Shown piece by piece: positions 29,578-48,341 of a stretch of 64,000 nt of DNA. Where the stretch lies: NCBI RefSeq assembly GCF_030269665.1, contig NZ_BSTS01000001.1:124001-188000 (forward strand). Reading direction: 5' to 3'. The notes beneath the pieces were generated by a model that worked only from the letters and a program-made list of their open reading frames with translations, was not told the origin of the DNA and searched no databases. The stretch's first letter is position 1. Every line of letters starts with the position of its first letter. Source of the stretch: Actinomycetospora sp. NBRC 106375. GTDB taxonomy: Bacteria > Actinomycetota > Actinomycetes > Mycobacteriales > Pseudonocardiaceae. Made by a program: the position numbers and the translations under genes.

Positions 29578-29670
29578 GGACGCCGACCCTAGCCGCGGGA
29601 GCCGGGGCGGGCCGGATGTCGCGGTAGGGTCCGGCGTAGTGGTGAGAGAGCTGACGACGAGGGAGTCGCG

Positions 29671-33710: not shown

Positions 33711-33726
33711 CGTCAGCATCCTGACG
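33711..33726. promoter_or_regulatory. 16-bp palindromic operator, site 1 (CGTCAG-CATC-CTGACG)
   Basis: Perfect 6-4-6 inverted repeat 25 bases before the amidohydrolase ATG, in the gap shared with the divergent SDR-TrmB unit. CTAGT precedes it, as at site 3. The other copies are at 37456, 40552, 44177 and 47440. Confidence 0.75.
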
Positions 33727-33751
33727 GCGCATGCCCGACCCGGGAGGCGCG

Positions 33752-35110
33752 ATGGCGAGCATCCTGATCCACGGCGGCACGGTCGTCGACGGCACCGGCG
33801 CCGCGGCGCGTCCCGGCGAGGACGTGCTGCTGCGCGACGGGCGCATCGCCGCCCTCGGCGCCGGAGCCGCCGCCGGCGCCGACGTGGCCACCGAGCGCGT
33901 CGACGCGACCGGGAAGACCGTCATGCCGGGCATCATCGACGCCCACACCCACCTCACCTTCGGCGAGCCCACCGGCAACGACGAGCTCTTCCACCACCGC
34001 ACCGAGGCCTACAGCTCGATGCTCTCGGCCTACAACGCCCGCAAGGTGCTGCGTGCCGGCGTCACGAGCGTGCTCGACGCCGACTGCCTCTGGAACATCG
34101 GTTGCGAGCTCCGCGACGCGATCGAGTCCGGGATCGTCGAGGGCCCGCGGATGCGCGCGGGCGGCCAGGCGCTGATGACGATGCTGGGCGGCACGGCCGG
34201 CCGGATGATCAAAGACGAGGGCCGCACGGGCTACGCGACGGTGGTCACCGGCCGGGACGTGATGGTCAACGAGATCCGGCGGCAGATCAAGTACGGCGTC
34301 GACTGGATCAAGATCATGGTCACGGGCCTCATCCCCTCGATGAAGGGCCCCGAGGTCAAGGTCTGGAACATCGACGAGCTGCGCACCGTCTGCGACACCG
34401 CGCACGAGCTGAACACCAAGGTCGTCGCGCACTGCCGCAACTCCGACTCCACCCGCGACGCCGCCCGGGCCGGTGTCGACCTGATCTACCACGCCTCCTA
34501 CCTCGACGACGAGGCCATCGAGGCCGTCGTCGAGGCCGGCGCGTCGATGTGCCCGACGTTCACGCTGCTCGGCAACCTCGCCGACTACGGCGAGAAGATC
34601 GGCACCGCGCCGGAGCTGCTGGACGTGTTCCGCGCCGAGATCGAGGTGACGGCGAAGCAGCTGACCAAGGCCCACGCCGCCGGGGTCCGCTTCCTCACCG
34701 GCTCGGAGACCGGCTTCGCGGTGACGCCGATCGGCGAGTGGCACGCCCGCGAGCTGGAGATGTTCGTCGACTACATGGGGATGACCCCGATGGAGGCGAT
34801 CGTCGCCGCGACCCGCAACGGGGCGTTCGCGATGCGGATGGAGGGCCCGGACGGGGTCGGCACGCTCGAGACCGGGAAGGTCGCCGACGTGCTGGTCGTC
34901 GACGGCGACCCGTTGCGCGACGTGAAGGTCCTCCAGGACAAGCAGAGGATCGTCGAGGTGATCAAGGATGGGCGCCGCACCGACCTCGTCACGCCGATCC
35001 CGGAGCACAAGCAGCGTGCGTCCGACCAGGTCCGCTTCCTCGCCGCCTGCCCGCTGACGCGCTCGCTCGCGCTCACCGAGGAGGACCTCGAGCGCCTGTC
35101 GCATGTCTGA
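33752..35110 (+). CDS. metal-dependent amidohydrolase (imidazolonepropionase-like)
   Basis: A 452-residue composite-barrel amidohydrolase. The metal site begins with GIIDAHTHLTF (His65/His67), continues with DWIKIMVTG (the lysine expected to be carboxylated), KVVAHCRN and LIYHASYLDD, and ends at FLTGSETGF. That last loop has Glu where most relatives place the catalytic Asp. The C-terminal strand GTLETGKVADVLVVDGDPLR is standard. It probably hydrolyses a cyclic amide, ester or hydrazide-like bond. The start ATG 33752 has GGGAGG 5 nt upstream. It overlaps the next amidohydrolase by 8 bases. Confidence 0.9.
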   Translation: MASILIHGGTVVDGTGAAARPGEDVLLRDGRIAALGAGAAAGADVATERVDATGKTVMPGIIDAHTHLTFGEPTGNDELFHHRTEAYSSMLSAYNARKVLRAGVTSVLDADCLWNIGCELRDAIESGIVEGPRMRAGGQALMTMLGGTAGRMIKDEGRTGYATVVTGRDVMVNEIRRQIKYGVDWIKIMVTGLIPSMKGPEVKVWNIDELRTVCDTAHELNTKVVAHCRNSDSTRDAARAGVDLIYHASYLDDEAIEAVVEAGASMCPTFTLLGNLADYGEKIGTAPELLDVFRAEIEVTAKQLTKAHAAGVRFLTGSETGFAVTPIGEWHARELEMFVDYMGMTPMEAIVAATRNGAFAMRMEGPDGVGTLETGKVADVLVVDGDPLRDVKVLQDKQRIVEVIKDGRRTDLVTPIPEHKQRASDQVRFLAACPLTRSLALTEEDLERLSHV

Positions 35111-36134
35111 GCCGGGCGTGCTCGACGGCGTGCTGGACGTGCACGCCCACGCCGTCCTGCGCTCGTCCGAGGGCGCGGCGGGGGCCGCCGGACCGGAGCT
35201 CGGCACGTCCGACGACGGCCGGCCGTTCTACCGCGTCGGCGACTACGTCCTGCACGGCGTCCGGTACGAGGGCAGCCCCTTCATGGACGTCGACGTGCGC
35301 CTCGCGGCCATGGACGCGGCGGGGATCGGGCGCCAGCTGCTCTCCCCCAACCCCCTGACCTACTTCGGCGACCTTCCCGTCGACGACGCCGTCGCCTTCG
35401 CGCGCCGCCACAACGACGGGCTCGCCACCCTCGTCACGAAGCATCCCGACCGGCTCCTCGCGGCCGCCCAGCTACCCGTCCAGGACGTCGCGGCGTCGAT
35501 CGCCGAGGCCCTCCGCGCGGTGCGCGACCTCGGGATGAGCGCGATCTACCTCGACACCGACCCGGCCGGGCGGACCCTCGACGACCCGGCGCTCGACGCG
35601 CTGTACGAGGCGGTCGTGGACCTCGACGTCCCGCTGTTCGTGCACCCCTCGCCGATCGGTCCCGACGGCCCGCCCGCCGACCCGCGACTGCGCCGGTTCG
35701 ACCTCGACCTGCAGTGCGGCTTCGCCTACGACGAGACCCTCGCGGTCGCCGCGCTGGTCTTCGGCGGCGTGCTCGAACGGCACCCGGAGCTGGACGTCTG
35801 CCTGTCCCACGGCGGCGGCGCCGCGGCGTTCCTCGCCGGGCGCTTCGCCCGGGCGGCCCGCAAGCGACCCTGGGCCTCGGAGGCGCTGCGCGAGCACGGC
35901 TTCGAGCCCTTCTTCCGCCGTCTCTGGCTCGACGTCCACGTGCACGACGAGGGCTCGCTCGCGCTGCTCGCGGACCGGGCTGACCGGGCTCGCCTGGTGT
36001 TCGGCACCAACTTCGCCGGCTGGGACTCGGACGCCGACGACACCCCGACCGGACCGTGGGCGCAGGAGCTGACGGCCAACGCCGAGCGCCTGCTGCGGAT
36101 CCCTACGGCAGTGGCTTCCTCGCCGTCTCCCTGA
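35103..36134 (+). CDS. amidohydrolase 2 / ACMSD-like protein
   Basis: A 343-residue amidohydrolase_2 family barrel related to aminocarboxymuconate-semialdehyde decarboxylase. Ligands visible are DVHAHAVL (HxH), LFVHPSPIG and LDVCLSHGGGAA. The final metal Asp, normally in G(S/T)D, is replaced: the strand reads FGTNFAGWD, with Asn in place of Asp and an Asp four residues later. Activity may be altered. The family performs decarboxylation or hydrolysis in aromatic ring-cleavage pathways. It is translated with the upstream amidohydrolase, and its last 32 bases overlap the convergent transporter gene. Confidence 0.85.
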   Translation: MSEPGVLDGVLDVHAHAVLRSSEGAAGAAGPELGTSDDGRPFYRVGDYVLHGVRYEGSPFMDVDVRLAAMDAAGIGRQLLSPNPLTYFGDLPVDDAVAFARRHNDGLATLVTKHPDRLLAAAQLPVQDVAASIAEALRAVRDLGMSAIYLDTDPAGRTLDDPALDALYEAVVDLDVPLFVHPSPIGPDGPPADPRLRRFDLDLQCGFAYDETLAVAALVFGGVLERHPELDVCLSHGGGAAAFLAGRFARAARKRPWASEALREHGFEPFFRRLWLDVHVHDEGSLALLADRADRARLVFGTNFAGWDSDADDTPTGPWAQELTANAERLLRIPTAVASSPSP

Positions 36135-37419
36135 GCGCGAGGACCGCCGGCAGCGAGACCACCGCCAGCACCATGACGTAGTACGCGCCGACCATCGTCG
36201 AGCCGGTGACGCCCCCGAGCCAGGTCAGCAGGTAGGGCGCCGAGCCGCCGAAGAGGGCGACCGACAGGTTGTACGTGATCCCGTGGCCGCTGACCCGGAC
36301 CCGGGTCGGGAAGAGCTCGACGAGGGCGGCGTTGATCACGGCGGCGTAGGCGCCGGCCAGCAGCCCGAAGAGCACCAGCCCGCAGGCGATGAGCCCGAAC
36401 GTCCCCGAGGTGATGAGCAGGAAGCTGGGGTACGAGAGCACGAGCAGGCCCAGGAGGCTCGCCAGCAGCACGGTCCGCCGCCCGACCCGGTCCGAGAGCC
36501 GGGCGCCGCCCACCTCGGCGACCAGGCAGGCCGCCAGCGCGATCACCGAGGGCGCGAAGGCCTGCACGCCGGTCAGCGCCAGGCTCTTCGTGGCGAAGCT
36601 GGGGAGGTAGCCGACGATCATGTAGAACGACGAGGCGTTGGCTGCGACCAGGAAGAACGCGATCACGAGCAGGCGGCGCTGGCGGTGGCCCGCCAGGGCG
36701 GCGCGCACCGGGTTCGCGGCCCGGGCGCGCTCCTCGCGCAGCGCCAGGAAGTAGGGCGTCTCGTCGAGCCGCCGGCGGATGTAGAGACCGACGAGACCCA
36801 GCGGCAGGGCGACCACCAGCGGGATCCGCCAGCCCCAGGACTGCATCTGCTCGGTCGTCAGCATCAGCAGCAGGGCCCCGGGCAGGAGGCTCCCGAGCAG
36901 GGTCCCGACGACCGCGCCGACGGAGATCATCCCGACGAAGAAGCCGCGCCGGTCGACGGGCGCGTGCTCGGCGACGAACGAGACGGCCCCGGAGATCTCG
37001 CCGCCCGCCGAGACGCCCTGCACGAACCGCAGGAGCACGAGCAGCGCGGGCGCCGCGAGCCCGATCGCCGCGTAGCCCGGCAGCAGGCCCATCAGCGCCG
37101 TGGCCGCGGACATCAGCAGGACCGTGAGCGCGAGGGTGCGCTTGCGCCCGATCCGGTCGCCGACCGCGCCCCACACGAAGCCGCCGAGCGGGCGGGCGAA
37201 GAACGCCACGGCGAACACGGCGAGCGTCGAGAGCAGCGCCGTCGTCGGGGCGACCGACGGGAAGAACACGGCCGCGAGCGTGGTGGCGAGCACCGCGTAG
37301 ACCGAGAACTCGTAGAACTCCACGAACGACCCGATGACGCCGCCCGCGAGCAGGCGCCGCAGCGCCCGCCGGGTGGTCGCGTCGTCGGGTGCCGGGAGGG
37401 CGGTCGATTCCGTGGACAT
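36103..37419 (-). CDS. metabolite:H+ symporter (MHS) family MFS transporter
   Basis: A 438-residue, 12-helix MFS protein of the MHS branch: FVEFYEFSVYAVLATTLAAV at helix 1, GDRIGRKRTLALTVLLMSAA as motif A, RFVQGVSAGGEISGA in helix 4 and RRLDETPYF in the central loop. MHS members import organic acids, betaines or aromatic acids with protons. A strong promoter (TTGACA-N18-TAACGT) with the 16-bp palindrome in it lies 36 bases upstream, so this is likely the uptake system for the compound degraded by the neighbouring enzymes. Confidence 0.92.
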   Translation of the reverse strand: MSTESTALPAPDDATTRRALRRLLAGGVIGSFVEFYEFSVYAVLATTLAAVFFPSVAPTTALLSTLAVFAVAFFARPLGGFVWGAVGDRIGRKRTLALTVLLMSAATALMGLLPGYAAIGLAAPALLVLLRFVQGVSAGGEISGAVSFVAEHAPVDRRGFFVGMISVGAVVGTLLGSLLPGALLLMLTTEQMQSWGWRIPLVVALPLGLVGLYIRRRLDETPYFLALREERARAANPVRAALAGHRQRRLLVIAFFLVAANASSFYMIVGYLPSFATKSLALTGVQAFAPSVIALAACLVAEVGGARLSDRVGRRTVLLASLLGLLVLSYPSFLLITSGTFGLIACGLVLFGLLAGAYAAVINAALVELFPTRVRVSGHGITYNLSVALFGGSAPYLLTWLGGVTGSTMVGAYYVMVLAVVSLPAVLALRETARKPLP

Positions 37420-37454
37420 CCGCGCTCCCGGACGTCGTCGTGGCGGGAGGTTAG

Positions 37455-37484
37455 ACGTTAGGTATCTGACGACGTACCTGTCAA
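37455..37484 (-). promoter_or_regulatory. promoter TTGACA-N18-TAACGT of the MHS transporter
   Basis: A consensus -35 TTGACA (37479-37484) and -10 TAACGT (37455-37460) on the minus strand. The palindrome at 37456-37471 covers the -10 and most of the spacer, so a bound protein would block polymerase. Confidence 0.6.
37456..37471. promoter_or_regulatory. 16-bp palindromic operator, site 2 (CGTTAG-GTAT-CTGACG)
   Basis: Matches site 1 with one base difference in the left arm (T for C). It lies between the transporter start and the stop of the metallophosphoesterase gene. Confidence 0.72.
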
Positions 37485-37509
37485 AGAACGGTGGACCACC
37501 GTCGACGGA

Positions 37510-38289
37510 TCATGCCGACGAGGGCCGGACGACCCGCCGCTCCACCGTGATCCGGGGACCGTCCGCGAGCCGGTAGGTGAGGTAGCCGGTGTCGGGATCC
37601 CCCGGCGGCGACGGGAGCTCCGGGACGGCGAACGCGACGCTCGGCGCGGTGATCTGACGCAACCCGTCGATCGTGTCGTCGCGGTGGCGGTGGACGTGCC
37701 CGCCGGCGACGACGGAGACGCCGGCGTCGGCCAGCCGCCGGACGAGGCGCTCCCGGGGACCGCTCGGCGGGACCGCCCAGCGCTCGGCCTCGCCGACGAC
37801 GGGCAGCAGCAGCGGTTGGTGGCAGAACAGCAGGGTCGGCTCGGCCGGTCCGCTCGCCAGCAGGTCGTCGAGCCAGTCCTCCTGCTCGCGCTCGGCGGAC
37901 AGCCCGCTCCCGAGCAGGAGCGAGTTGATGCCGACGAGCCGCCAGCCGGCGTGGCGGTGGACCCACCGGTCGCCACCCCAGACGCGCAGGTAGGCCACGC
38001 GCCGCTCGTCGGTGATCGACGTGTGGTCGCCGAGGTCGTGGTTGCCCGGCACCAGGAGCACCGGGACCGGGAGCTCCCCGATCGCCCGGCGGGCGGCCGC
38101 GTGGTCCTCGGTGCGGTCCGGGTCGTCCAGCACCATGTCGCCGGTGTGGACGACGAGGTCGGGCGGGTCGGCCCGGAGCGCGTCGCGCACCAGCACCCAC
38201 TGGGTGCGGGCCCGGGCGGGCCGGCCGTGCGGATCGTCGTCGGGGCGGGGCGCCGAGAGATGGGTGTCGCTGATCTGGGCGAGCATCAT
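37510..38289 (-). CDS. metallophosphoesterase, CpdA-like
   Basis: A 259-residue calcineurin-fold phosphodiesterase with all five signature blocks: DTHL (ISDTHLSAPR), GDMVLD, GNHDLGDH, FCHQPLL and GGHVHRHRD. It resembles class III cyclic nucleotide phosphodiesterases (CpdA, Rv0805) and may hydrolyse cAMP or another phosphodiester. It starts at ATG 38289 or 38286. It follows an SDR gene by 18 bases and is probably co-transcribed from the P450 unit upstream. Confidence 0.85.
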   Translation of the reverse strand: MMLAQISDTHLSAPRPDDDPHGRPARARTQWVLVRDALRADPPDLVVHTGDMVLDDPDRTEDHAAARRAIGELPVPVLLVPGNHDLGDHTSITDERRVAYLRVWGGDRWVHRHAGWRLVGINSLLLGSGLSAEREQEDWLDDLLASGPAEPTLLFCHQPLLLPVVGEAERWAVPPSGPRERLVRRLADAGVSVVAGGHVHRHRDDTIDGLRQITAPSVAFAVPELPSPPGDPDTGYLTYRLADGPRITVERRVVRPSSA

Positions 38290-38307
38290 GGGCAGGTCCC
38301 CCGTGCC

Positions 38308-39054
38308 TCAGAGCAGGGCCTGGTACGCCCCGCCGTCCACCGGGATCGCGGTCCCGGTGACGAACGCGGCCGGCGACGAGCACAGGAACGCGACCAGCGC
38401 CGCGCACTCCGCGGGATCGCCGAGGCGGCCGGCCGGCACGCCGGCGAGGGCCTCGGCGCGCACCGCGGGGTCGGCGTAGACCGAGCGGACGCGGTCGGTG
38501 TCGTGCAGGCCCGGGAGCACCGAGTTCACGGTGACCCCGTCCCCGGCCACCTCGCGGGCGAGGGTGCGCAGGAAGCCCGTCGCCCCGGCGCGCGCGGTGT
38601 TCGACAGCGCGAGGTTCGGATAGGGCTGGCGCACACCCAGCGAGGTGATCGCGACGACCCTCCCCCAGCCGCGCTCGCGCATCCCCGGCACCGCGGCCAG
38701 GCACATGCCGACCACCGCGAGCAGGCTGCGGTCCAGCGCGGCCTGGTAGTCGCCCAGCGCGGTGTCGGCCACGCGTCCCGGGGCCGGCCCCGGGCCGTTG
38801 ACGACGAGGACGTCGAGCCCGCCGTGGCGCGCCTCGACCTCGCGGACGAACCCCGCGGCCGCCTCCGGGTCGGTGAGGTCGGCGACGGCCCAGTCGGCGC
38901 CCAGCTCCGCGGCGGCCGCCTCGGCACGCCCGGCGTCGGAGCCGCAGAGGGTGACCTCGGCGCCCTCGGCGACGAGCGCCGCCGCGCACGCCCGCCCCAG
39001 CCCGGCCGTCCCGGCGGCCACCGCCGCGCGCCGCCCCCGAATCCCCAGGTCCAC
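38308..39054 (-). CDS. SDR family oxidoreductase, atypical
   Basis: A 248-residue SDR: AAGTAGLGRA cofactor motif, VVNGPGPAPG replacing NNAG (as in the 3-oxoacyl-ACP reductase FabG-like subgroup with a GPG loop), Ser in AITSLGVRQP, and SNTARAGATG, where the usual YxxxK lysine and tyrosine are replaced by Asn and Arg. The GPG/SNTAR pattern is known in a divergent SDR subgroup. The reaction is uncertain. It is followed by the metallophosphoesterase gene and preceded by the ferredoxin remnant. Confidence 0.82.
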   Translation of the reverse strand: MDLGIRGRRAAVAAGTAGLGRACAAALVAEGAEVTLCGSDAGRAEAAAAELGADWAVADLTDPEAAAGFVREVEARHGGLDVLVVNGPGPAPGRVADTALGDYQAALDRSLLAVVGMCLAAVPGMRERGWGRVVAITSLGVRQPYPNLALSNTARAGATGFLRTLAREVAGDGVTVNSVLPGLHDTDRVRSVYADPAVRAEALAGVPAGRLGDPAECAALVAFLCSSPAAFVTGTAIPVDGGAYQALL

Positions 39055-39074
39055 GTGCCCTCCCGCTCAGGTGC

Positions 39075-39303
39075 TCACGAGGCGAAGATGTCGATCTCCT
39101 CGCCAGTCCCGGCATCGAACACCAGCAGCGCGGTCGCCGGACAGGCGCGGGCGAGGCGCAGCGCCGTGTCGTCGGGCAGCGGCGGAGCGCCGGGCACCCC
39201 CTCGGCGACCTCGTCGTCGTCGAACCGGAACCGGTCGGGGTGCTCGGCGACGCAGCGCCCCGAGCTGAGGCAGATGTCCTTGTCGACCTCTGCGGTAGGT
39301 CAC
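39075..39303 (-). pseudogene. 3Fe-4S ferredoxin of the P450 system, with apparent +1 frameshift
   Basis: From 39290 down to the stop at 39075 one frame reads VDKDICLSSGRCV, AEHPDRFRFDDDEV, LRLARACPATALLV and EEIDIFAS: a three-cysteine 3Fe-4S ferredoxin typical of actinobacterial P450 partners. That frame has no start codon. It opens only after the P450 TGA. The well-placed start, GTG 39303 with GGAGG 6 nt upstream and GTGA overlap with the P450 stop, lies one frame off. Removing one base near 39291 restores a 75-residue ferredoxin. Either the gene is broken or the sequence has a one-base error. As written, the P450 lacks its local electron donor. Confidence 0.75.
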
Positions 39304-40511
39304 GACCCTCCTCCGAGCAGCACCGGGTAGGTCGCCCAGTACGGGCGGGCGGTGGTGGTGTCGCGCTCCGGCGAATGCTCGGGGTCGTGGCGGACCCCCG
39401 CCGCGAACAACTGACCCACGGCGCCGGTGACGAGACCGAACAGGTGGGTGTCGGGATCGGTGTCGGGGCGGGCCACGACGCCGGCCGCGAGGTCCTGGCC
39501 GATGCAGACGTGCATCCCCGCGGCGAAGCTCAGCCCGAACGGGGCGACGCCCGCGGGCACCGTGCGGTCCGGGTCGAACGCCGCCGCGTCGGGCCCGAAG
39601 AGCGTGGTGTCCCGGTTCACCGCCTGCAGGTCGATCACCACGGTGGCGCCCTCGGGGATCGTCGTACCCGAGCGCAGCGCGACCGGGGCGAGCGCCCGGC
39701 GCCTGCCGACCGGGCTCGACGGGTTGAGCCGCACCGTCTCGTGCACGGCGCGCTGCAGGAACAGCGGGTCGGTGTGCGCGTGCGCGCGTCCGGGGTGGTC
39801 GGCGAACCAGCCGAGCAGGTGGTCGACGGTGCGCACGAACGCGGTCGCGCTCGTGTGGGCCCCGGCGAGCAGGTAGAACGCGACCTCGCGGCGGACGACG
39901 TGGTGCGGCAGGTCGAGCTCGTCGGCGTGACGCAGCAGGGTGGTCAGGACGTCGCGGGGTGCCTCCGCGTCCCCGGCCGCCAGGATCTCCCGGCGCCGCG
40001 CGATCGACGGCGCGAGGAACTCGGCGTCCCACTCCTCGAGCGCCCGGGCCACCTCCGCGGCCTTCGCGGCCTTGTCGCCCGTGGCGTGCGCCAGCGTCGC
40101 GCCCTCGATGAACCGCATCATGTGCGCGTGCAGCCGGGCGGTCTCGGCGGCGGTGCCCTCCGGGCGGTCGATCCCGGCGGTGAGCGCGGCGAGGTTGAGC
40201 ATCAGCTCGTGGCCCAGGTGCACGAGGTCCACGTGGCCCGCGGCGACGTACGGGGCGAGCGTCTGGGCCGTGACCTCGGGGAACAGGTCGCGCTCGTAGC
40301 GCTCGAAGACGTCGCGGCGGAACATCCGGTTCTCCACGCGGCGCCGGTCGCGGTGCTCGGTGCCGTGCAGGTTCACCAGCACGTCGGCCATGACGACCTC
40401 GCCCTCGTCGTAGAGGGACTGGCGCAGGTCGCGGCTGCGGTAGGCGTCCTTGGCGTCGGCGAACGTGCTCAGGGTGACGACGACCGATTCCCCGGTGGCG
40501 GCTGTGGTCAC
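39300..40511 (-). CDS. cytochrome P450 (first of the His-type pair)
   Basis: 403 residues. Heme loop FAAGMHVCIG (Cys336), ExxR at ETVR 258-261 and VGRRR in the meander. The I helix reads AGAHTS (216-221): where P450s normally have an acidic residue before Thr, this one has His. The same is true of the P450 at 44279 (AGSHST), and the two share YRQHDLEQ/YRSRDLRQ-like N-termini and RRRVENRMFRR. Start GTG 40511 has GGGAGGA 5 nt upstream. GTG 40541 is in frame too. It is transcribed with the ferredoxin from a promoter covered by operator site 3. Confidence 0.92.
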   Translation of the reverse strand: MTTAATGESVVVTLSTFADAKDAYRSRDLRQSLYDEGEVVMADVLVNLHGTEHRDRRRVENRMFRRDVFERYERDLFPEVTAQTLAPYVAAGHVDLVHLGHELMLNLAALTAGIDRPEGTAAETARLHAHMMRFIEGATLAHATGDKAAKAAEVARALEEWDAEFLAPSIARRREILAAGDAEAPRDVLTTLLRHADELDLPHHVVRREVAFYLLAGAHTSATAFVRTVDHLLGWFADHPGRAHAHTDPLFLQRAVHETVRLNPSSPVGRRRALAPVALRSGTTIPEGATVVIDLQAVNRDTTLFGPDAAAFDPDRTVPAGVAPFGLSFAAGMHVCIGQDLAAGVVARPDTDPDTHLFGLVTGAVGQLFAAGVRHDPEHSPERDTTTARPYWATYPVLLGGGS

Positions 40512-40543
40512 GGCTTCCTCCCTCGACCCCGACGGGCTCACGG

Positions 40544-40571
40544 ACGCTAGTCGTCAGTCCCCTGACGTCAA
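40544..40571 (-). promoter_or_regulatory. promoter TTGACG-N16-TAGCGT of the P450-ferredoxin unit
   Basis: -35 TTGACG at 40566-40571 and -10 TAGCGT at 40544-40549 on the minus strand, 33 bases before GTG 40511. Operator site 3 fills the spacer. Confidence 0.6.
40552..40567. promoter_or_regulatory. 16-bp palindromic operator, site 3 (CGTCAG-TCCC-CTGACG)
   Basis: Perfect 6-4-6 palindrome. It overlaps the stop codon of the Gfo/Idh/MocA gene and lies between the -35 and -10 of the P450 promoter. Confidence 0.75.
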
Positions 40572-41603
40572 CCCGCCGTCGACGGCGTCGGCCACCCGCA
40601 GGGCGGCGACGCCGTCGGCGAAGGTCGGCAGATCCCCGGCCGCGTCGTCCCCGGCCACACGCGCGACGAGCGCCCGGACGAGCCGGGTGAACGGCTCCGT
40701 GGCGGCGCCGGCGGCGGCGACGATCTCGGTGACCTCCTCGCCGGCGCGGGCCCCGGAGAGCCGCACGGGGAAGTGCCCCGTGTGCCCGGCCGCCTCGGCG
40801 AGCAGCACCCCCTCGGAACCGTGCGCGACGAGCCGCCACCCCGCGCCGGCGGGCGCGACCCACGAGCTGTGCACCGAGCACAGGCCCTCGCCGTCGAGCC
40901 GGGCGACCCAGGCCGCCGAGTCGACGCTGTCGGCCGGCAGCGGCCCGTCGGGGCCCGGCCAGGAGGGGGCGCGGCGCGCCACCACGCCGCGGACGTCGGA
41001 GAGCCCGCCGAACACCCACCGCAGGATGTCGGCGGTGTGCAGCCCGTGGACCCGCAGCGAGCTCGCCCCGTGCGCGGCGTCGGCGCACCACCCCGAGCCG
41101 CTCACCGCGGCCGGCATCGTGAACGTCGGGTAGAACGCCTGGACCGCGACGTTGTCGACGCGACCGATCCAGCCCTCGGACACGCGGCGGCGGAGCTCGG
41201 CCAGGCCCGGCCAGAACCGCGACTGCATGTCGACCACCGCCAGCCGCCCCGAGACCGCGGCCGCGTCGGCCATCGCGAGCCCCTCCGCCGTCGAGCGGGC
41301 CAGCGGCGCCTCGCAGAGCACGTGCTTGCCCGCCGCGAACGCCGCCGTTGCCATCGCCGCGTGCCGGCTCGGCCGGGTCGCCACGTCCACGAGGTCGACG
41401 TCCGGGTCGGCGCACAGCGCCTCGAAGCCCACGTGGGCCCGCGGGACGCCGTGCGTGCGGGCGGCCTCGTCGGCGGTGTCGCGGTGCGCGGTCGCGACGG
41501 CGGCGAGCTCGACCAGGCCCTCGCGGACCAGCGCGGCGTAGACCGGGAGGTGCGTGCCGGCCGCGTAGTTCAGGCCGACGACACCGATGCGCAGCGGCGT
41601 CAC
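40554..41603 (-). CDS. Gfo/Idh/MocA family oxidoreductase
   Basis: A 349-residue NAD(P)-dependent dehydrogenase of the glucose-fructose oxidoreductase family: RIGVVGLNYAAGTHLPVY at the N-terminal Rossmann fold, VDLVDVATRPSRHAAMATAA, GKHVLCEAPLARS (the EKP motif reads EAP, so the usual Lys is absent), and ASSLRVHGLHTADILRWVFG in the substrate domain. The loss of the lysine could change catalysis. GTG 41603 overlaps the LLM stop (GTGA). It is part of the minus-strand unit FAD protein-LLM-Gfo. Confidence 0.87.
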   Translation of the reverse strand: MTPLRIGVVGLNYAAGTHLPVYAALVREGLVELAAVATAHRDTADEAARTHGVPRAHVGFEALCADPDVDLVDVATRPSRHAAMATAAFAAGKHVLCEAPLARSTAEGLAMADAAAVSGRLAVVDMQSRFWPGLAELRRRVSEGWIGRVDNVAVQAFYPTFTMPAAVSGSGWCADAAHGASSLRVHGLHTADILRWVFGGLSDVRGVVARRAPSWPGPDGPLPADSVDSAAWVARLDGEGLCSVHSSWVAPAGAGWRLVAHGSEGVLLAEAAGHTGHFPVRLSGARAGEEVTEIVAAAGAATEPFTRLVRALVARVAGDDAAGDLPTFADGVAALRVADAVDGGLTSGD

Positions 41604-42625
41604 GCGGGGACCGAGGGGACGGTCGACCGGTCGAGCGCGGGCAGCACCTCGGTCCCGAACAGCTCCATGGCCCGCAGGACCGACCGGTGGTCCGGGCCGG
41701 TCGGGTAGCGGAAGATCATGAGGAAGTCGTCGACGCCCGCCTCGTCGCGGAAGCGCCCGATGGTCTCGACGCACTCCTCGGGGGTGCCGAAGACGAACCG
41801 GTCGCGCACGAACTCCTCGAGGGTGATCTGGTCGGCGCTCGTGACGCCGGGCAGGTCGGTGATCGCGCCGTAGTCGAACAGGGTGCGGGCCATCGCGAGC
41901 GCGGTGTCGCCGAAGAGCTCCAGGGCCTCCTCGCGCGAGGTGTACGGCCAGCAGAAGCGGATCGAGGTCACGTGCGGGCGCCGGCCGGCGGCCTCCGCCG
42001 CGGCGCGGTAGTCGGCGGCCATGGCCTTCATGGTGTCCAGCGACATCAGGGCGTTGGTGATCCAGCCGTCGCCGAGGCGCCCGGCGCGGCGCAGGCCACC
42101 GGGCGTCCAGGCCGCGAGGTGCAGCGGGACGCCGCCGTCCTGCAACGGGCGCGGCAGCACGGCGAGGTCGTCGAAGCGGTGCAGCCGGTCGTCGAAGGAG
42201 AAGCGCTCCTGGGTGTGCGCCGCCCGCACGATGCGCACGGTCTCGTCGAAGCGCTGGGCCCGGTCGTCCCAGGGCACGCCGGCGGCGGCGTAGTCGACGG
42301 GCATGTAGCCGGCGCCGAGCCCGAGCCAGGCGCGCCCGCCGGAGAGCTGGTCGAGGATCGCGGCGTCCTGCGCGAGGACGACCGGCGCGTAGAGCGGGGC
42401 GATGGCGATCGCCGTCCCGACGCGGACCCGCTGCGTCCGGGCGGCGATCGCGAAGGCGAGGTGCAGGGGCGCGCCGAAGTACTCGTCGGAGTCCTTGTGC
42501 TCCGTGGTCAGCGCGGCCGAGAAGCCGAGCCGGTCCGCGGCCTCGGCCTGCTCGAGGATCTCCGCCAGCACGGTCTGCGGCTCGCCGGTGACCTGGCCCT
42601 GCGTGAACAACACTCCGACCGACAT
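41600..42625 (-). CDS. LLM class flavin-dependent oxidoreductase
   Basis: A 341-residue luciferase-like monooxygenase subunit: ALTTEHKDSDEYFGAP, VGTAIAIAPLYAPVVLAQDA, LDQLSGGRAWLGLGAGYMP and PLHLAAWTPGGLRRAGRLGD are conserved F420/FMN-contact blocks. ATG 42625 has GAGGAGA 6 nt upstream. It lies 28 bases after the FAD-binding gene and overlaps the Gfo gene. It probably oxygenates a ketone or other carbonyl compound in the cluster's pathway. Confidence 0.9.
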   Translation of the reverse strand: MSVGVLFTQGQVTGEPQTVLAEILEQAEAADRLGFSAALTTEHKDSDEYFGAPLHLAFAIAARTQRVRVGTAIAIAPLYAPVVLAQDAAILDQLSGGRAWLGLGAGYMPVDYAAAGVPWDDRAQRFDETVRIVRAAHTQERFSFDDRLHRFDDLAVLPRPLQDGGVPLHLAAWTPGGLRRAGRLGDGWITNALMSLDTMKAMAADYRAAAEAAGRRPHVTSIRFCWPYTSREEALELFGDTALAMARTLFDYGAITDLPGVTSADQITLEEFVRDRFVFGTPEECVETIGRFRDEAGVDDFLMIFRYPTGPDHRSVLRAMELFGTEVLPALDRSTVPSVPA

Positions 42626-42653
42626 CGTCGTCTCCTCGGGGGTCCGGGACTGC

Positions 42654-44111
42654 TCAGGAGGTGGGCTCGGGATCGAGCCGCACGAGCGCGATGCGGGTGT
42701 CGAGCATGCTCGGCAGCCCCGCGTGGAGGACCGATCCGTGGCCGCCGCCGCCCGCGACGTCGCGCGCCGCGGCCCGCCCGGCGACGCGGCCGAGCGTGAA
42801 GCCGCCGCTGATGTGGATCCCGCCGAGGTCCGAGACCGGGTTGAGCCCGCCCACGCAGTCGCCCGCGGCGAACAGCCCCGGGATCGCGTCGCCGAACACG
42901 TCGAGGACCTGCAGGTCGGTGGTGACGCGGAAGCCGCCGCAGCAGAAGTTGATGCCCTCCACCATCGGCACGGCGGTGAACGGCGCCCGGGTGCACGTCC
43001 GGCGACCGGGCGGGAGCACCACGCGGCCGAAGTCGGGGTCGCGGTCGTCCGTGGTGCCCGCGAGGAAGTCGTTCCACCGCGCGACGGTGCCCTCGAGCGC
43101 CGCCGCCGGGACGCCGACGGCCGCGGCCAGCTCGGGCAGGCTCCCGGCGGAGACCGGCGGCTCGGGCATCTGGCTGATCAGCGTGGCCTTCTCCCGGAAG
43201 ACCTCGTCGTCGACGACGTACCAGGCCCGGCGCCCGGGCTGCTCGTGGAGGCGGTCGACCCGCTCCTCGTACGGCCCGGCCTCGTCGTGGAACCGCTCCC
43301 CCGCGGTGTTGACCGCGATCGCGTCCTCGACGACCGACGACGAGACGATCACGAGCGGCGGCACGAACGTCATGTTGACCAGGTCGCCGCCCACCGCCTG
43401 GCCGAGGAGGTGGCCGTCGCCGCGGCACGTGTCGATGCCCAGGTAGGGCGCCCGGGCCACCACCTCGGGCTGGAAGCGGCGCCGCAGCTCGGGGTTCGAC
43501 TGGTAGCCGCCCGTGGCCAGGACGACGCCGCGGCGCGCGGTGACCTCCAGGGGCGCGTCGTCGTCGCGGCGGTGCGCCCGGACACCGGTGACGCGGCCGT
43601 CGGTGACGACGAGGCGGTCGGCCACCGTGCCGTACCGGACCGTCACACCGGGGCGCGTCGTGTCGGGCGCGAAGGCCCGGCCGAGCATCCAGCTGTCCTC
43701 CACCGCCGCCATCCGGTCGACGGTGTGCTGGCGCGGGCGCGGGATGAAGCGGCTGAAGCGCACGCCGCGCTCGGTGAGCAGCCGGTAGGTCTCGGCGCTC
43801 TCGCGGGCGAACAGCCGGACCAGGTCCTCGTCCCACTCGACGCCGAAGCGGTCGCGGGCCTCGTCGACCATCGCGCGGGCGTCCGCGACGAAGGTCTCCT
43901 CGTCGTCGACGAGGCCCTGCTCGCGCTGCATCGCCGAGTCGACGAACGCCAGGTAGCCGGTGGACCAGACCGCGTTGCCGCCGATGTGGTCCATGGCCTC
44001 GAGCACGACGACCGACGCGCCCTCGTCGGCCGCGGCGGAGAGCGCCGCCATGCCGGCGGGACCGGTACCGAGCACGACGACGTCGGCGTCGAGCGTCTCG
44101 ACCTCGGGCAC
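42654..44111 (-). CDS. FAD-binding protein, fumarate reductase / ketosteroid dehydrogenase type
   Basis: About 485 residues of the FAD_binding_2 family. The dinucleotide motif DVVVLGTGPAGMAALSAAAD is at residues 9-28, then GGNAVWSTGY and RGVVLATGGYQSNPELRRRF. The FAD-closing GLFAAGDCVGGLNPVSDLGG and GFTLGRVAG come near the end. The family oxidises or reduces C-C bonds next to a carbonyl (succinate, 3-ketosteroids). GTG 44111 with GGGAG 6 nt upstream was chosen. GTG 44153 is in frame. The divergent promoter region holds operator site 4. Confidence 0.88.
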   Translation of the reverse strand: MPEVETLDADVVVLGTGPAGMAALSAAADEGASVVVLEAMDHIGGNAVWSTGYLAFVDSAMQREQGLVDDEETFVADARAMVDEARDRFGVEWDEDLVRLFARESAETYRLLTERGVRFSRFIPRPRQHTVDRMAAVEDSWMLGRAFAPDTTRPGVTVRYGTVADRLVVTDGRVTGVRAHRRDDDAPLEVTARRGVVLATGGYQSNPELRRRFQPEVVARAPYLGIDTCRGDGHLLGQAVGGDLVNMTFVPPLVIVSSSVVEDAIAVNTAGERFHDEAGPYEERVDRLHEQPGRRAWYVVDDEVFREKATLISQMPEPPVSAGSLPELAAAVGVPAAALEGTVARWNDFLAGTTDDRDPDFGRVVLPPGRRTCTRAPFTAVPMVEGINFCCGGFRVTTDLQVLDVFGDAIPGLFAAGDCVGGLNPVSDLGGIHISGGFTLGRVAGRAAARDVAGGGGHGSVLHAGLPSMLDTRIALVRLDPEPTS

Positions 44112-44176
44112 GGCGACTCCCGCTACGTTGGGTCCGGCGGTGGGGCGGGTCACAGAGTGGGCAGATCACCGGGCGG

Positions 44177-44192
44177 CGTCAAGCACCTGACG
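44177..44192. promoter_or_regulatory. 16-bp palindromic operator, site 4 (CGTCAA-GCAC-CTGACG)
   Basis: One arm differs by one base from the consensus. On the minus strand its TTGACG could serve as -35 with CACTCT 17 bases on, for the FAD gene. It sits in the gap between divergent FAD and P450 genes. Confidence 0.68.
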
Positions 44193-44205
44193 ACGTCCGC
44201 GCCAC

Positions 44206-44240
44206 TCGACCAGCCCCTGGCGCGTTGCTAGCGTCGTTAG
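44206..44240 (+). promoter_or_regulatory. candidate P450 promoter with adjacent half-operator
   Basis: TCGACC (44206-44211), 17-base spacer, TAGCGT (44229-44234), followed directly by CGTTAG (44235-44240), the left arm of the palindrome. The right arm is poor (GCCACG). Confidence 0.4.
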
Positions 44241-44278
44241 TCACGCCACGCCGATGCCGGATCGCGAGGGAGCGCTCC

Positions 44279-45481
44279 TTGTCCACGATCACCCTGGACC
44301 GCTACGCCGACGTCCGCGAGGCCTACCGTCAGCACGACCTCGAGCAGGCGCTCTACGACGCGGGCGGCGTCGTCATGGCCGACTGCCTGCTCGTGCTGCA
44401 CGGGTCCGCGCACCGCACCCGGCGGCGGGTGGAGAACCGGCTGTTCCGGCGCGGGACGTTCCGCCACTGGGAGCACACGTTCCTGCGCGAGGTCGTCACC
44501 GACACCCTCGCGCCCTTCGTCGCCGCCGGGCACGCCGACCTGCTCGAGCTCGGCTACCGGACGGTCATGAACCTGACGGCGATGGTGGCCGGGGTGGACC
44601 ACTCGACCACCGACGTCACGGAGACCGACGCGCTCTACCGGTTCGCCAAGAAGTTCTCCGAGGGCGCGACGCTGGTGCACACCACGCGCGACCCCGCCGA
44701 GGTCCGCGCCGAGGTCGCGGCGGCGCTCGACGAGTTCGACAGGATCTTCCTGACGCCCTCGATCGCCCGCCGCGAGGCGCTGCTCGACCGGCTCGCGGCC
44801 GGGGAGGTCCCCGAGGACGACCTGCCGCGCGACGTCCTCACCGCGCTGCTGCGGCACCGCGACGATCTCGGCCTCGACCGGGACATGCTGCGCCGCGAGG
44901 TCGCCTTCTACCTGCAGGCCGGCTCCCACAGCACCGCCGACGCGTTCTCCCACGCCGTCGACGACTGGTTCGCGTGGCGGGCCCGCGACCCCGAGGCCGC
45001 CGAGGAGGCCCGCCACGACCCCGCGCTGCTGCAGGCGTGCGTGTACGAGACGTTGCGGCTGCACCCGGCGAGCCCCGTGGCACGCCGCCGCGCGCTGGCG
45101 GCGATCTCGCTGCGCGGCGGCACCGACATCCCGGAGGGGTCCGAGGTCGTCCTCGACATCGCCGCGGCCAACCGCGATCCGGAGGTCTTCGACCGGCCCG
45201 CGGAGTACGACCCGGCCCGCGACGTCCCGTCCGACGTCCCGCGCTGGGGGCACGCGTTCGGCGGCGGCATGCACGCCTGCATCGGCACCGAGCTCGCGGG
45301 CGGGGTGCCGGCCGCGGGCTCGGCCGAGGGCGCCCAGGTCCTCGGCACCGTCACCCTCATGCTCGACGCCCTGCTCGCCGCGGGGGCCCGACCGGACCCG
45401 GCGGCGCCGCCGCGCCGCGACCCGCACTCGGCGCGCGACCACTTCGCGTCCTACCCCGTCGTGTTCGGAGACGAAGCATGA
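44279..45481 (+). CDS. cytochrome P450 (second of the His-type pair)
   Basis: 400 residues if translation starts at TTG 44279, the only candidate with a good ribosome site (GAGGGAG 8 nt upstream). A TTG start is unusual here. Heme loop FGGGMHACIG (Cys334), ETLR 257-260, and I helix AGSHST (214-219) with His in the position normally held by Asp or Glu. It shares long blocks with the P450 at 39300, so the two are paralogues. No ferredoxin follows. Instead an NTF2-like gene overlaps its stop by 4 nt (ATGA). Confidence 0.92.
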   Translation: MSTITLDRYADVREAYRQHDLEQALYDAGGVVMADCLLVLHGSAHRTRRRVENRLFRRGTFRHWEHTFLREVVTDTLAPFVAAGHADLLELGYRTVMNLTAMVAGVDHSTTDVTETDALYRFAKKFSEGATLVHTTRDPAEVRAEVAAALDEFDRIFLTPSIARREALLDRLAAGEVPEDDLPRDVLTALLRHRDDLGLDRDMLRREVAFYLQAGSHSTADAFSHAVDDWFAWRARDPEAAEEARHDPALLQACVYETLRLHPASPVARRRALAAISLRGGTDIPEGSEVVLDIAAANRDPEVFDRPAEYDPARDVPSDVPRWGHAFGGGMHACIGTELAGGVPAAGSAEGAQVLGTVTLMLDALLAAGARPDPAAPPRRDPHSARDHFASYPVVFGDEA

Positions 45482-45909
45482 AGGGGAGCACGCCGATAGG
45501 GGAGCTCGACCATCGGCACGAGCCCGTGATGGCGCCGGTGATCGGCCGGTTCCTCGCCGCGGTCGAGGCCCGCGACGCCGAGGCCGCCGGCGCCTGCTTC
45601 GCCGAGGACGCGATGTGGGCGAACGTCCCGCACCCGCCGGTGGTCGGTCCGGCGGGCGTGCGGGACATGCTGGCGCCGATCCTCGCGCGGTCGGAGTGGG
45701 TGCGCTGGGACGTCGTCACCGCCGCGCACACCCCCGAGCGGTCATGGCTGGAGCGGGTCGACCGCTTCGGCATCGACGGCGAGGAGTACGCCGTCGCGTG
45801 CCACGGCGTCGTCGAGGTCGACCCCGTGCGGGACCTCATCACCGGCGTCCGCGACTACGTGGACCTCGGCGAGTGGCGGGCCCGCCTCGGCGCCGTGCTG
45901 ACGCTGTGA
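45478..45909 (+). CDS. NTF2/SnoaL-like protein (limonene-epoxide hydrolase-like)
   Basis: A 143-residue cone-shaped alpha+beta barrel protein: VIGRFLAAVEARDAEAAGAC at helix 1, CFAEDAMWANVPHPPVVGPA, RVDRFGIDGEEYAVACHGVV and a C-terminal ITGVRDYVDLGEWRARLG that resembles limonene-1,2-epoxide hydrolase (conserved Asp/Arg positions possible but not proven). It could open an epoxide or isomerise the P450 product. It overlaps the P450 stop by 4 nt, so it is made with it. Confidence 0.8.
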   Translation: MKGSTPIGELDHRHEPVMAPVIGRFLAAVEARDAEAAGACFAEDAMWANVPHPPVVGPAGVRDMLAPILARSEWVRWDVVTAAHTPERSWLERVDRFGIDGEEYAVACHGVVEVDPVRDLITGVRDYVDLGEWRARLGAVLTL

Positions 45910-45919
45910 CGGACAGGCC

Positions 45920-46918
45920 ATGACAGAGGACCTGCGGATCGGCCTCGGGCTCTGGAGCGGACAGCACGGCGACCCCACCGACGCGGTCGCGCTCGCCCGG
46001 GCGGGCGAGGACGCCGGCTTCGACGCGTTCTGGGTCACCGAGCACCACGGCCTGCCCGACGGCTACCTGCCCTCGCCGCTGACCGTCCTGGCCGCCTGCG
46101 CCACCGCGACCTCCCGCATCGAGCTGGCGACGGGCGTGGTGCTCGCCCCGCTGCACCACCCGCTGCGCCTCGCCGAGGACGCCGCGCTCGTCGACCGGCT
46201 CAGCGGCGGGCGGCTCCTGCTCGGCCTCGGGCTCGGGTACGCCGAGCACGAGTACCGGGCGTTCGGCGTCGACCCCTCGCGCCGCGGCGAGCGCCTCGAG
46301 GCGCTCGTGGGCGCGCTGCGCGCGGCGGGGACGGGCGAGCCGTTCTCCGCCCCGGCGCTGGGGCTGCACGACGTGCGGGTCACGCCGACGCCGGCGCGCC
46401 CGATCCCGCTGTGGCTCGGCGGCTACGCCGACCGGGCCGTCGCGCGGGCCGGGCGCCTGGCCGACGGGCACCTCGTCGGGCGCGGCGAACCGGCGATCGT
46501 CGAGGCCGCCTCGCGGACGCTGGCCGGGGTCCGGGACCCCGCCGACCCGACGTTCGTCCGCGGCGTCGTCGTCACCTGCGTGCTGGACGCGCCCGGCGGC
46601 GGCGCCGCGCAGGCCCGCGCCGGCTTCGCCCGCGCCCAGCAGGCCTACGAGGACATCCAGCGCGGGCGCGCGGTCTACGCGGGGCTCGCGGAGCCCGTCG
46701 CGGCGTCCGACACCGACGCCCACCTCCAGGTCCGCGGCGACGTCGACGAGGTCGTCGCCGGCCTGCGGGCCGTGGTAGCGGGACTCGCGGCCTGGTCGCG
46801 CGCCCACCTCGTGATCCGCCTGCTCTTCGCCGAGCCGGACCTCGACACCGCCCTGACCCGCGTCGCGACCGTCGGCGAGCGGGTGCTTCCCCGTCTGCGC
46901 TCCCCGGAGGCATCGTGA
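45920..46918 (+). CDS. LLM class flavin-dependent oxidoreductase
   Basis: A 332-residue luciferase-like protein: WVTEHHGLPDGYLPSPLTVL, ELATGVVLAPLHHPLRLAED, LVDRLSGGRLLLGLGLGYAE and PIPLWLGGYADRAVARAGRL. It lies 10 bases behind the NTF2-like gene and overlaps the next SnoaL-like gene by 4 nt. It is the second LLM enzyme of the cluster, not closely similar to the one at 41600. Substrate unknown. Confidence 0.9.
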   Translation: MTEDLRIGLGLWSGQHGDPTDAVALARAGEDAGFDAFWVTEHHGLPDGYLPSPLTVLAACATATSRIELATGVVLAPLHHPLRLAEDAALVDRLSGGRLLLGLGLGYAEHEYRAFGVDPSRRGERLEALVGALRAAGTGEPFSAPALGLHDVRVTPTPARPIPLWLGGYADRAVARAGRLADGHLVGRGEPAIVEAASRTLAGVRDPADPTFVRGVVVTCVLDAPGGGAAQARAGFARAQQAYEDIQRGRAVYAGLAEPVAASDTDAHLQVRGDVDEVVAGLRAVVAGLAAWSRAHLVIRLLFAEPDLDTALTRVATVGERVLPRLRSPEAS

Positions 46919-47415
46919 ACCCGGTATTCGGCCTTCGGCGCGGCAGCTCCGCTGCTCTGCGTGCCGCCCACGACCGCGCCGCGATCACCGACGTTCTGGC
47001 GCTGTACTGCGAGCGGATCGACTCCTACGACGTGGATGCCGTCGTGGACCTGTTCACCGCGGACGCCGTCATGGACTTCGGCCCCGGCCGCGGCGGGGTG
47101 CTGCGCGGCCGCGCGGCGCTGCGGGCGCGGTTCGCGGGCGGTCAGGGCGGGTTCCGGCGGACGCACCACCACCTCGGCCAGGTGCGCATCACCGAGGAAG
47201 CCGACGGGCGTGTGCACGCGGTGTCGTCCTGCTCGGCGGGGCACGAGCACCACGACGGGACGCAGTGGCGCGTGGGCCTGCGCTACGTCGACGTGCTGGT
47301 GCGCTCGGACGGCGCGTGGCGGATCGCCGAGCGCCGGATCGAGGCCGCGCTGGTCGAGGGCGGCCCGCGCGACGGGTGGACCTGGGTCGTCCGGAAGGAG
47401 CCCGAGACCGGCTGA
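46915..47415 (+). CDS. SnoaL-like (NTF2 fold) protein
   Basis: A 166-residue NTF2-fold protein with AAITDVLALYCERIDSYDVD and VDLFTADAVMDFGPGRGGVL, THHHLGQVRI (a His cluster where scytalone dehydratase-like enzymes keep their catalytic His) and WRIAERRIEAALVEGG. Enzymes of this shape act as dehydratases, cyclases or hydroxylases. GTG 46915 overlaps the LLM stop by 4 nt (GTGA). Confidence 0.83.
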   Translation: MNPVFGLRRGSSAALRAAHDRAAITDVLALYCERIDSYDVDAVVDLFTADAVMDFGPGRGGVLRGRAALRARFAGGQGGFRRTHHHLGQVRITEEADGRVHAVSSCSAGHEHHDGTQWRVGLRYVDVLVRSDGAWRIAERRIEAALVEGGPRDGWTWVVRKEPETG

Positions 47416-47418
47416 GCC

Positions 47419-47448
47419 TTGCCCGGCGCGATCGAGCGGCGTTAGCGT
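47419..47448 (+). promoter_or_regulatory. promoter TTGCCC-N18-TAGCGT of the SDR-P450-SnoaL unit
   Basis: -35 TTGCCC at 47419-47424 and -10 TAGCGT at 47443-47448, 46 bases before the SDR ATG. The -10 lies inside operator site 5. Confidence 0.5.
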
Positions 47449-47455
47449 CCTCACG
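47440..47455. promoter_or_regulatory. 16-bp palindromic operator, site 5 (CGTTAG-CGTC-CTCACG)
   Basis: One base in the right arm departs from CTGACG. Placement over the -10 resembles site 2. Confidence 0.55.
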
Positions 47456-47493: not shown

Positions 47494-48336
47494 ATGGCGG
47501 CAGTACTGCGGGGGCTCGAGGGCAAGCACGTCCTGATCACCGGCGCGGCGAAGGGCCAGGGGCTCAGCCACGCGCTGGCGTTCGCCGACGCGGGGGCCGA
47601 CATCGCCGCGCTCGACATCACCGACCCGATCCCCGACATCTATCCGCTCGCCACGGGCCAGATGCTCGAGGACACCGTCCAGGCCGTGGAGAAGTCCGGT
47701 CGCCGGTGCCTCCCGCTGCCCTGCGACATCCGCGACGAGAGCCAGGTCGAGGCCTCGGTGGCCAAGGCGCTCGACTACTTCGACGGGCGCATCGACGTGC
47801 TCGTCAACAACGCCGGCGTCGCCGCCCTCGACACCATCCAGGGCATGCGGCCGCACGTCATGGACGCCGTGATCGACACGATCGTCAAGGGCCACATGTA
47901 CCTCGCGAAGTACGTGGTGCCGAACATGATCGGCCGGGGCGCCGGCAAGATCATCAACATCTCGTCCGGGGTCACCGGCTCCGGGCACGCCCAGCTGTCG
48001 CACTACGTCGCCGCCAAGCACGCGATCCAGGGCCTGACGTCGGCCTGGGCCTTCGAGCTCGCCGAGTTCGGCATCAACGTCAACGCGATCGCGCCGGCCA
48101 CCATCAAGCCGGGCGAGGGCCAGGGCTCCGGCATGGTGCTGGGTCTCGCGGGCGAGGTCGGGATGGCGCCCGACGACGCCTACGAGATGTTCTCCGCGGC
48201 CGGCAACATGCCCGGGGAGAAGTGGCGCACCGAGGTCTCCGACATCACCGACTCGGTGCTGTTCCTGGCGTCGGACAACGCCGACCAGATCACCGGGCAC
48301 ATCCTGCGCGTCGATGCCGGACAGGGGGCGAAGTAG
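47494..48336 (+). CDS. mycofactocin-coupled-type SDR oxidoreductase
   Basis: A 280-residue SDR: ITGAAKGQGLSHALAFADAG at the cofactor site, then the insertion ALDITDPIPDIYPLATGQML typical of mycofactocin-associated carveol dehydrogenase-like SDRs, which hold NAD tightly. Further blocks are VLVNNAGVAA, NISSGVTG, HYVAAKHAIQGL (YxxxK) and HILRVDAGQGAK. Relatives oxidise terpene alcohols such as carveol. ATG 47494 has GAGGAGG 6 nt upstream. It is followed by a P450 after 5 bases. No mycofactocin synthesis gene lies in the window. Confidence 0.92.
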   Translation: MAAVLRGLEGKHVLITGAAKGQGLSHALAFADAGADIAALDITDPIPDIYPLATGQMLEDTVQAVEKSGRRCLPLPCDIRDESQVEASVAKALDYFDGRIDVLVNNAGVAALDTIQGMRPHVMDAVIDTIVKGHMYLAKYVVPNMIGRGAGKIINISSGVTGSGHAQLSHYVAAKHAIQGLTSAWAFELAEFGINVNAIAPATIKPGEGQGSGMVLGLAGEVGMAPDDAYEMFSAAGNMPGEKWRTEVSDITDSVLFLASDNADQITGHILRVDAGQGAK

Positions 48337-48341
48337 CACCG

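What the first reader, a model, noticed from the sequence alone, without database searches (positions are those of the whole stretch)
33711..47455. One 16-bp palindrome repeats in five promoters of a 14-kb catabolic region
CGTCAG-CATC-CTGACG (33711), CGTTAG-GTAT-CTGACG (37456), CGTCAG-TCCC-CTGACG (40552), CGTCAA-GCAC-CTGACG (44177) and CGTTAG-CGTC-CTCACG (47440) all lie in intergenic or start-proximal DNA, none deep inside genes. Three overlap a readable -35/-10 pair (TTGACA-N18-TAACGT, TTGACG-N16-TAGCGT, TTGCCC-N18-TAGCGT). This is the layout of repressor sites and defines a regulon: amidohydrolase pair, MHS transporter, P450-ferredoxin, divergent FAD protein and P450, and SDR-P450-SnoaL.
Basis: partly seen in the sequence, partly recalled or inferred. 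Interest (0 to 1): 0.78.

Follow-up and report, generated by a model that had tools for sequence, protein, structure and literature searches.

The report
Shared operator of a catabolic regulon
A short mirrored DNA word sits on the promoters of a soil actinobacterium's block of breakdown enzymes and recurs at the same genes in related species, which marks it as the binding site of one switch protein, most likely a TrmB-type regulator encoded in the block.

Summary
All five palindromes are at the stated places, at promoters: 8 strand-matches in the window against 0.18 expected, and 5 of the pattern's 12 places in the genome lie in this 14-kb block. Sites recur at the same promoters in six congeners; where present, half-sites are 93-100% identical while most spacers and flanks vary. 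The full operator is about 24 bp, TAGTCGTYAG-N4-CTRACGACTA. The likeliest binder is the TrmB-type protein 31928-32803: 7 of 18 genomes of the genus have it, and the same seven have clustered sites. A matrix trained on this genus finds the operator just upstream of trmB in 8 of 66 loci from other genera, against 76 of 9601 other windows. Against this, 39 of 80 trmB loci have no site nearby, including every Actinomadura and Streptosporangium locus fetched. Binding, direction of control, inducer and substrate are untested. Ordinary in kind; the regulator-operator pair was not found described in the papers searched.

The parts
29641..29656 (+).
   Evidence: matrix score 23.5; 11-12 of 12 matches at the same place in G001, G003, G014, G016; weaker hits (19.8, 21.3) at the matching place in G011, G012
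33711..33726 (+). Operator between divergent SDR-trmB and amidohydrolase units
   Evidence: exact palindrome; kept in G011 and G012; only degenerate versions seen in G001, G014, G016
37456..37471 (-). Operator inside TTGACA-N18-TAACGT before the MFS transporter
   Evidence: kept in 5 of 6 congeners, not seen at 11 of 12 in G016
40552..40567 (-). Operator inside TTGACG-N16-TAGCGT before P450-ferredoxin-SDR-phosphoesterase
   Evidence: kept in 6 of 6 congeners
44177..44192 (+). Operator between divergent FAD protein and P450; the variant half CGTCAA reads TTGACG on the other strand, a possible -35 box of the FAD gene
   Evidence: kept in G011, G012; a TTGACG half recurs at the FAD/P450 promoter in L111, L113, L120, L163
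44235..44250 (+). Weak possible second operator at the P450 promoter
   Evidence: matrix score 12.3; other genera have two sites 60-77 bp apart at this promoter, e.g. L111, L120
47440..47455 (+). Operator overlapping the -10 of TTGCCC-N18-TAGCGT before SDR-P450-SnoaL
   Evidence: kept in G011, G012
31928..32803 (-). TrmB-type winged-helix regulator, proposed binder
   Evidence: PF01978, 55.9 bits against a cut-off of 25.6
29671..31920 (+). ThuA, TIM barrel (xylose-isomerase-like), SDR
   Evidence: the TIM barrel start is not resolved
32821..33609 (-). SDR upstream of trmB, same strand
33752..36134 (+). Two amidohydrolases
   Evidence: nearest solved relatives
36103..37419 (-). MFS transporter of the metabolite/H+ symporter type
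37510..40541 (-). Phosphoesterase, SDR, ferredoxin (39075-39299), P450
40554..44153 (-). GFO/IDH, luciferase-like, FAD_binding_2 proteins
44225..47415 (+). P450, SnoaL, luciferase-like, SnoaL proteins
   Evidence: the P450 start is not resolved
47494..50125 (+). Mycofactocin-type SDR, P450, SnoaL
   Evidence: the SDR is below the NCBIfam cut-off

Best explanation
The palindromes are operators of one local transcription factor, most likely the TrmB-type winged-helix protein at 31928-32803. As a dimer it would bind the roughly 24-bp palindrome TAGTCGTYAG-N4-CTRACGACTA, whose halves lie about one helical turn apart. It would cover the -35/-10 spacer, the -10 box or the start region of the promoters of this block and block RNA polymerase. 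When a small molecule fed into, or made by, the P450/amidohydrolase pathway binds its C-terminal domain it would let go, and the operons would switch on together; the site next to the SDR-trmB unit could give self-control. Shown here: the sites, their conservation, their position and the statistical link to trmB. Inferred: binding, dimerisation, repression, inducer and catabolic role.
For: 8 strand-matches against 0.18 expected; all 3 exact 20-mers of the genome lie in the block. Sites at the same promoters in six congeners, half-sites 93-100% identical with spacers at 38-63% for MFS, P450a, AHa and ThuA (rows were chosen for having the site). Loci with a TrmB of 74% identity or more: 23 perfect palindromes in 23 loci against a mean of 0.1 and at most 2 for 40 permuted half-sites. 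TrmB is the only DNA-binding protein that Pfam finds between ThuA and the last SnoaL; the TetR at 50132 is absent from L061-L064, which keep the sites. TrmB in 7 of 18 genomes of the genus, the same 7 that have two or more perfect palindromes within 20 kb. Matrix trained on this genus: site of 15 or more within 150 bp upstream of trmB in 8 of 66 loci of other genera against 76 of 9601 other windows. Three sites coincide with -35/-10 pairs.
Against: No binding or expression data. 39 of 80 trmB loci have no site of score 15 or more, among them all 9 Streptosporangium and all 23 Actinomadura/Spirillospora loci, although the recognition helix is the same in all of these but L148. Two of the 23 loci with TrmB of 74% or more also lack it (L116, L119). 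Outside that group whole-locus counts of the palindrome do not exceed the best permuted half-site. 58 of 66 distant trmB promoters lack a site of 15 or more. Co-occurrence in the genus cannot separate TrmB from the rest of the block, which is inherited with it. A strict promoter scan finds no sigma-70 promoter in the region.
Confidence: 0.65

Rival explanations
1. The sites are operators of this TrmB-type protein, but it activates some or all promoters instead of repressing them.
For: Archaeal TrmBL1/Tgr proteins repress when the site is downstream of the TATA box and activate when it is upstream (passage of PMC4158304). Site 44177 lies upstream of the possible P450 -35/-10 pair at 44205-44234.
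Against: Three sites cover the -35/-10 spacer or the -10 box, and 29641 and 33711 lie close to the start codon, which fits blocking better.
Confidence: 0.17
2. The sites are operators of another regulator, encoded outside the block.
For: 39 of 80 trmB loci lack the site; genus-level co-occurrence is confounded by inheritance of the whole block.
Against: The operator stands just upstream of trmB in 8 of 66 loci of other genera; in L159, L167 and L174 no other gene of the block was detected, though the first two contigs are short.
Confidence: 0.16
3. Chance palindromes in GC-rich DNA, or conserved coding words.
For: One of the six places in the window (62626) is inside a gene, and a near-identical word recurs in five congeners without TrmB.
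Against: Shuffle expectation of 0.18; conserved half-sites with variable spacers at orthologous promoters in several genera.
Confidence: 0.01

Closest known systems
Archaeal TrmB / TrmBL1 / Tgr sugar regulators (Pyrococcus, Thermococcus)
   Same: TrmB-type HTH (PF01978); palindromic operators at core promoters, some autoregulated (passages of PMC4158304)
   Different: Archaeal motifs are TACT-N3-AGTA and TATCAC-N5-GTGATA, here CGTYAG-N4-CTRACG. The archaeal effector domain PF11495 is not found at E 1e-5, and NCBIfam TrmB models score 34-37 bits against cut-offs of 500-650.
Local catabolic regulons of actinobacteria under one repressor (KstR-type steroid regulons; recalled, from no call)
   Same: One regulator, one palindrome, several promoters in a block of oxidoreductase genes
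   Different: Those are TetR-type (recalled); here the only regulator in the conserved block is TrmB-type

Membership tests
TrmB family (DNA-binding domain) | TrmB-type winged HTH, PF01978 | tested here: met
   E 4e-15, 55.9 bits, cut-off 25.6; nearest solved chain is P. furiosus TrmB 3qph, E 4e-5
TrmB sugar-sensing regulators | C-terminal effector domain PF11495 | tested here: not met
   no match at E 1e-5; weak NCBIfam scores far below cut-off. Fold comparison could not be run
TrmB family operators | Binds a palindrome at its target promoters | not testable with these tools
   only statistical association; no binding data
Local regulon under one operator | Same site at several promoters, conserved at orthologous genes | tested here: met
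Local regulon under one operator | Cognate regulator identified | tested here: inconclusive
   association with trmB is strong near home and absent in 39 of 80 loci
Repressor operator | Site overlaps core promoter or start region | tested here: met
   three sites coincide with -35/-10 pairs; no strict sigma-70 promoter was found, and start sites are not mapped

The most novel reading that the evidence does not exclude
An actinobacterial branch of TrmB-HTH proteins without the archaeal sugar-binding domain controls P450/amidohydrolase catabolic blocks through a 24-bp operator. The pair is older than the genera, since the operator stands before trmB in Ilumatobacteraceae and Streptomyces, and part of the branch (Streptosporangium, perhaps Actinomadura) has changed operators while keeping the same recognition helix.
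Probability: 0.45. Interest if true: 0.55.

Novelty: new member of a known kind. Interest (0 to 1): 0.45.

Why it matters
It gives a testable regulator-operator pair for a bacterial TrmB-type protein; the listings (some capped, open-licence papers only) showed no paper on such a regulator in this bacterial family. The shared operator tells which P450s, hydrolases, oxidoreductases and transporter of the block work together, which is a handle on the unknown substrate, and with a known inducer the pair could serve as a sensor.

Tried and rejected
The TetR protein 50132-50710 as regulator: not found in L061-L064, which carry the same five sites. Site 62626 as a regulon member: inside an Fe-ADH gene, matrix score 11.3 against 10.6 as the best of five shuffles, and a word with the same halves recurs in five congeners without TrmB (G002, G006, G009, G015, G017, list truncated; that it lies in the same gene there was not checked). 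The perfect palindrome at G000 contig C10:28106: it lies between a MarR-like gene and an MFS-exporter-like gene (labels read by eye from the translations) and lacks the G..C flanks. A site of normal spacing at the SDR start near 33601: only a palindrome with a spacing three bases shorter is there (sequence). Coding/intergenic classification by codon bias: unreliable near gene ends, not used for a count. The substrate could not be named: the nearest solved relatives are prolidase/ochratoxinase-type amidohydrolases, ACMSD-type decarboxylases, DgpA and other GFO/IDH dehydrogenases, fumarate-reductase-like flavoproteins and assorted P450s.

Limits of the counts. The 7 of 7 against 0 of 11 co-occurrence was read by hand; of the 11, G004, G008 and G013 are incomplete (83, 84 and 59%), so absence there is weak. 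41 of 80 loci with and 39 without a site were counted by hand. The footprint rows were chosen for having the site: MFS 6, P450a 7, AHa 3, P450b 3, SDRd 3, ThuA 5 of 7 genomes. TrmB starts were set from tblastn match starts, so upstream distances can be off by some codons. The 80 loci are the best 80 of 112, found with two peptide words from the HTH, so the sameness of the helix is partly a product of the search.

Full report
What was claimed. Five copies of a 16-bp palindrome in a 14-kb catabolic region, at promoters, forming a regulon, with a TrmB protein as the suggested binder.

Check of the observation. All five words are where stated. The degenerate pattern gives 8 strand-matches (6 places) in 64 kb against 0.18 expected. 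The sixth place, 62626, lies inside an iron-containing alcohol dehydrogenase gene. The genome (6.79 Mb, 104 contigs, 97% complete) holds 12 places, 5 of them in the block. A matrix from 26 sites of this genus scores the window's five sites 23.4-31.1 (they are in the training set) and a sixth, 29641 (not in it), 23.5; the next are 16.8 (21516) and 12.3 (44235). Five shuffled windows reach at most 10.6. 21516 was not followed up.

Surroundings. Pfam gives, in order: ThuA, TIM barrel, SDR (+); TrmB, SDR (-); two amidohydrolases (+); MFS transporter (-); phosphoesterase, SDR, ferredoxin, P450 (-); GFO/IDH, luciferase-like, FAD_binding_2 (-); P450, SnoaL, luciferase-like, SnoaL (+); SDR, P450, SnoaL (+); TetR (-). 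Each of these units but TetR has a site in front, if 33711 and 44177 are counted for both divergent units there. Site 40552 overlaps the last 14 bases of the GFO/IDH frame.

Relatives. In 20-kb stretches of six congeneric genomes the same genes carry the palindrome at the same promoters. G001, G003 and G014 keep the MFS, P450 and ThuA sites; G016 keeps the P450 and ThuA sites, and its MFS site is not seen at 11 of 12. At the amidohydrolase promoter of G001, G014 and G016 only a degenerate site is seen. Among the rows that have the site, half-sites plus two flanking bases, spacer, and the next 20 bases on each side are identical to 100%, 63% and 45-52% (MFS, 6 genomes), 95%, 38% and 48-61% (P450a, 7), 100%, 58% and 38-45% (AHa, 3), 93%, 47% and 43-57% (ThuA, 5). 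At P450b and SDRd only three close genomes were compared, spacers are 83-100% alike and the test says little.

Which protein. TrmB orthologues occur in 7 of the 18 genomes of the genus, own included, the same 7 that have two or more perfect palindromes within 20 kb. In 200 family genomes TrmB at E 1e-30 is in 14 and the amidohydrolase at E 1e-150 in 8, all 8 with a TrmB of at least 75% identity, so block and regulator travel together and this test cannot separate them. The better test is trmB outside the genus. One search fetched 80 loci, the best of 112. Loci with TrmB of 74% or more hold 23 perfect palindromes in 23 loci against a mean of 0.1 for 40 permuted half-sites, at most 2; with one mismatch 66 against 5.6, at most 39. 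In the two more distant groups the counts (0 and 2 perfect; 11 and 27 with one mismatch) do not exceed the best permuted word (3 and 3; 27 and 49). With the matrix trained only on Actinomycetospora, 66 non-redundant loci of other genera (75 before removing near-duplicates) were scored: 8 have a site of 15 or more within 150 bp upstream of trmB against 76 of 9601 other windows of these loci; at 10 or more, 12 against 106; at 18 or more, 6 against 68. The 8 are L118, L157, L159, L164, L167, L169, L172, L174; some of them are close relatives. In L159, L167 and L174 no other gene of the block was detected, though the first two contigs are short.

Results against. 39 of 80 loci have no site of 15 or more, among them all 9 Streptosporangium and all 23 Actinomadura/Spirillospora loci, with the recognition helix the same in all but L148 (the search words partly impose this). 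Upstream of trmB, 4 of 9 Streptosporangium loci (L128, L129, L134, L148) show TTTAG-N7-CTAAA instead, read by eye.

How it works. Sites 37456, 40552 and 47440 coincide with TTGACA-N18-TAACGT, TTGACG-N16-TAGCGT and TTGCCC-N18-TAGCGT; a relaxed form of this pair occurs 3 times in the window, only here. The strict sigma-70 scan finds no promoter in the region. Sites 29641 and 33711 lie close to start codons. Site 44177 has the variant half CGTCAA, on the other strand TTGACG; the same variant recurs at the FAD/P450 promoter in L111, L113, L120 and L163, so it may double as a -35 box (inference). This is repressor geometry; activation at some promoters is not excluded.

What it is like. Archaeal TrmB proteins bind palindromes at core promoters and some regulate themselves (12 of 31 passages of PMC4158304 seen). 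The protein here has the HTH but no sugar-binding domain by Pfam, so I call it TrmB-type, not a TrmB sugar regulator. Paper searches: 1 paper; 20 of 1,169 listed; 1; 2; 12 of 210 listed; 0; 10 of 35 listed; listings and abstract starts only. None named this regulator or operator; most subscription journals are not held.

Verdict. A real, conserved, local operator with a probable cognate regulator; ordinary in kind, undescribed in the papers searched.

Noticed in passing
G000 contig C10:28106 (locus L075, 10107): A perfect palindrome CGTTAGATACCTAACG between a divergent MarR-like regulator and an MFS-exporter-like gene, probably that regulator's own operator (labels by eye).
   Followed up: partly
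window 62626-62641: The pattern inside an Fe-ADH gene; a word with the same halves recurs in five congeners without TrmB, so it probably reflects codon conservation.
   Followed up: partly
L128, L129, L134, L148, about 40 bases upstream of trmB: A different palindrome, TTTAG-N7-CTAAA, in 4 of 9 Streptosporangium trmB promoters: a possible change of operator under an almost unchanged recognition helix.
   Followed up: no
window 21516-21531: Matrix hit of 16.8 (GGTCAGCGTGCTGACG) 8 kb outside the block.
   Followed up: no
   Followed up: partly
window 40554-41774, 29671-31162: A GFO/IDH protein with DgpA (C-glycoside catabolism) among its nearest solved relatives, with a TIM barrel and ThuA in the same regulon: a hint of glycoside substrates, not tested.
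   Followed up: no
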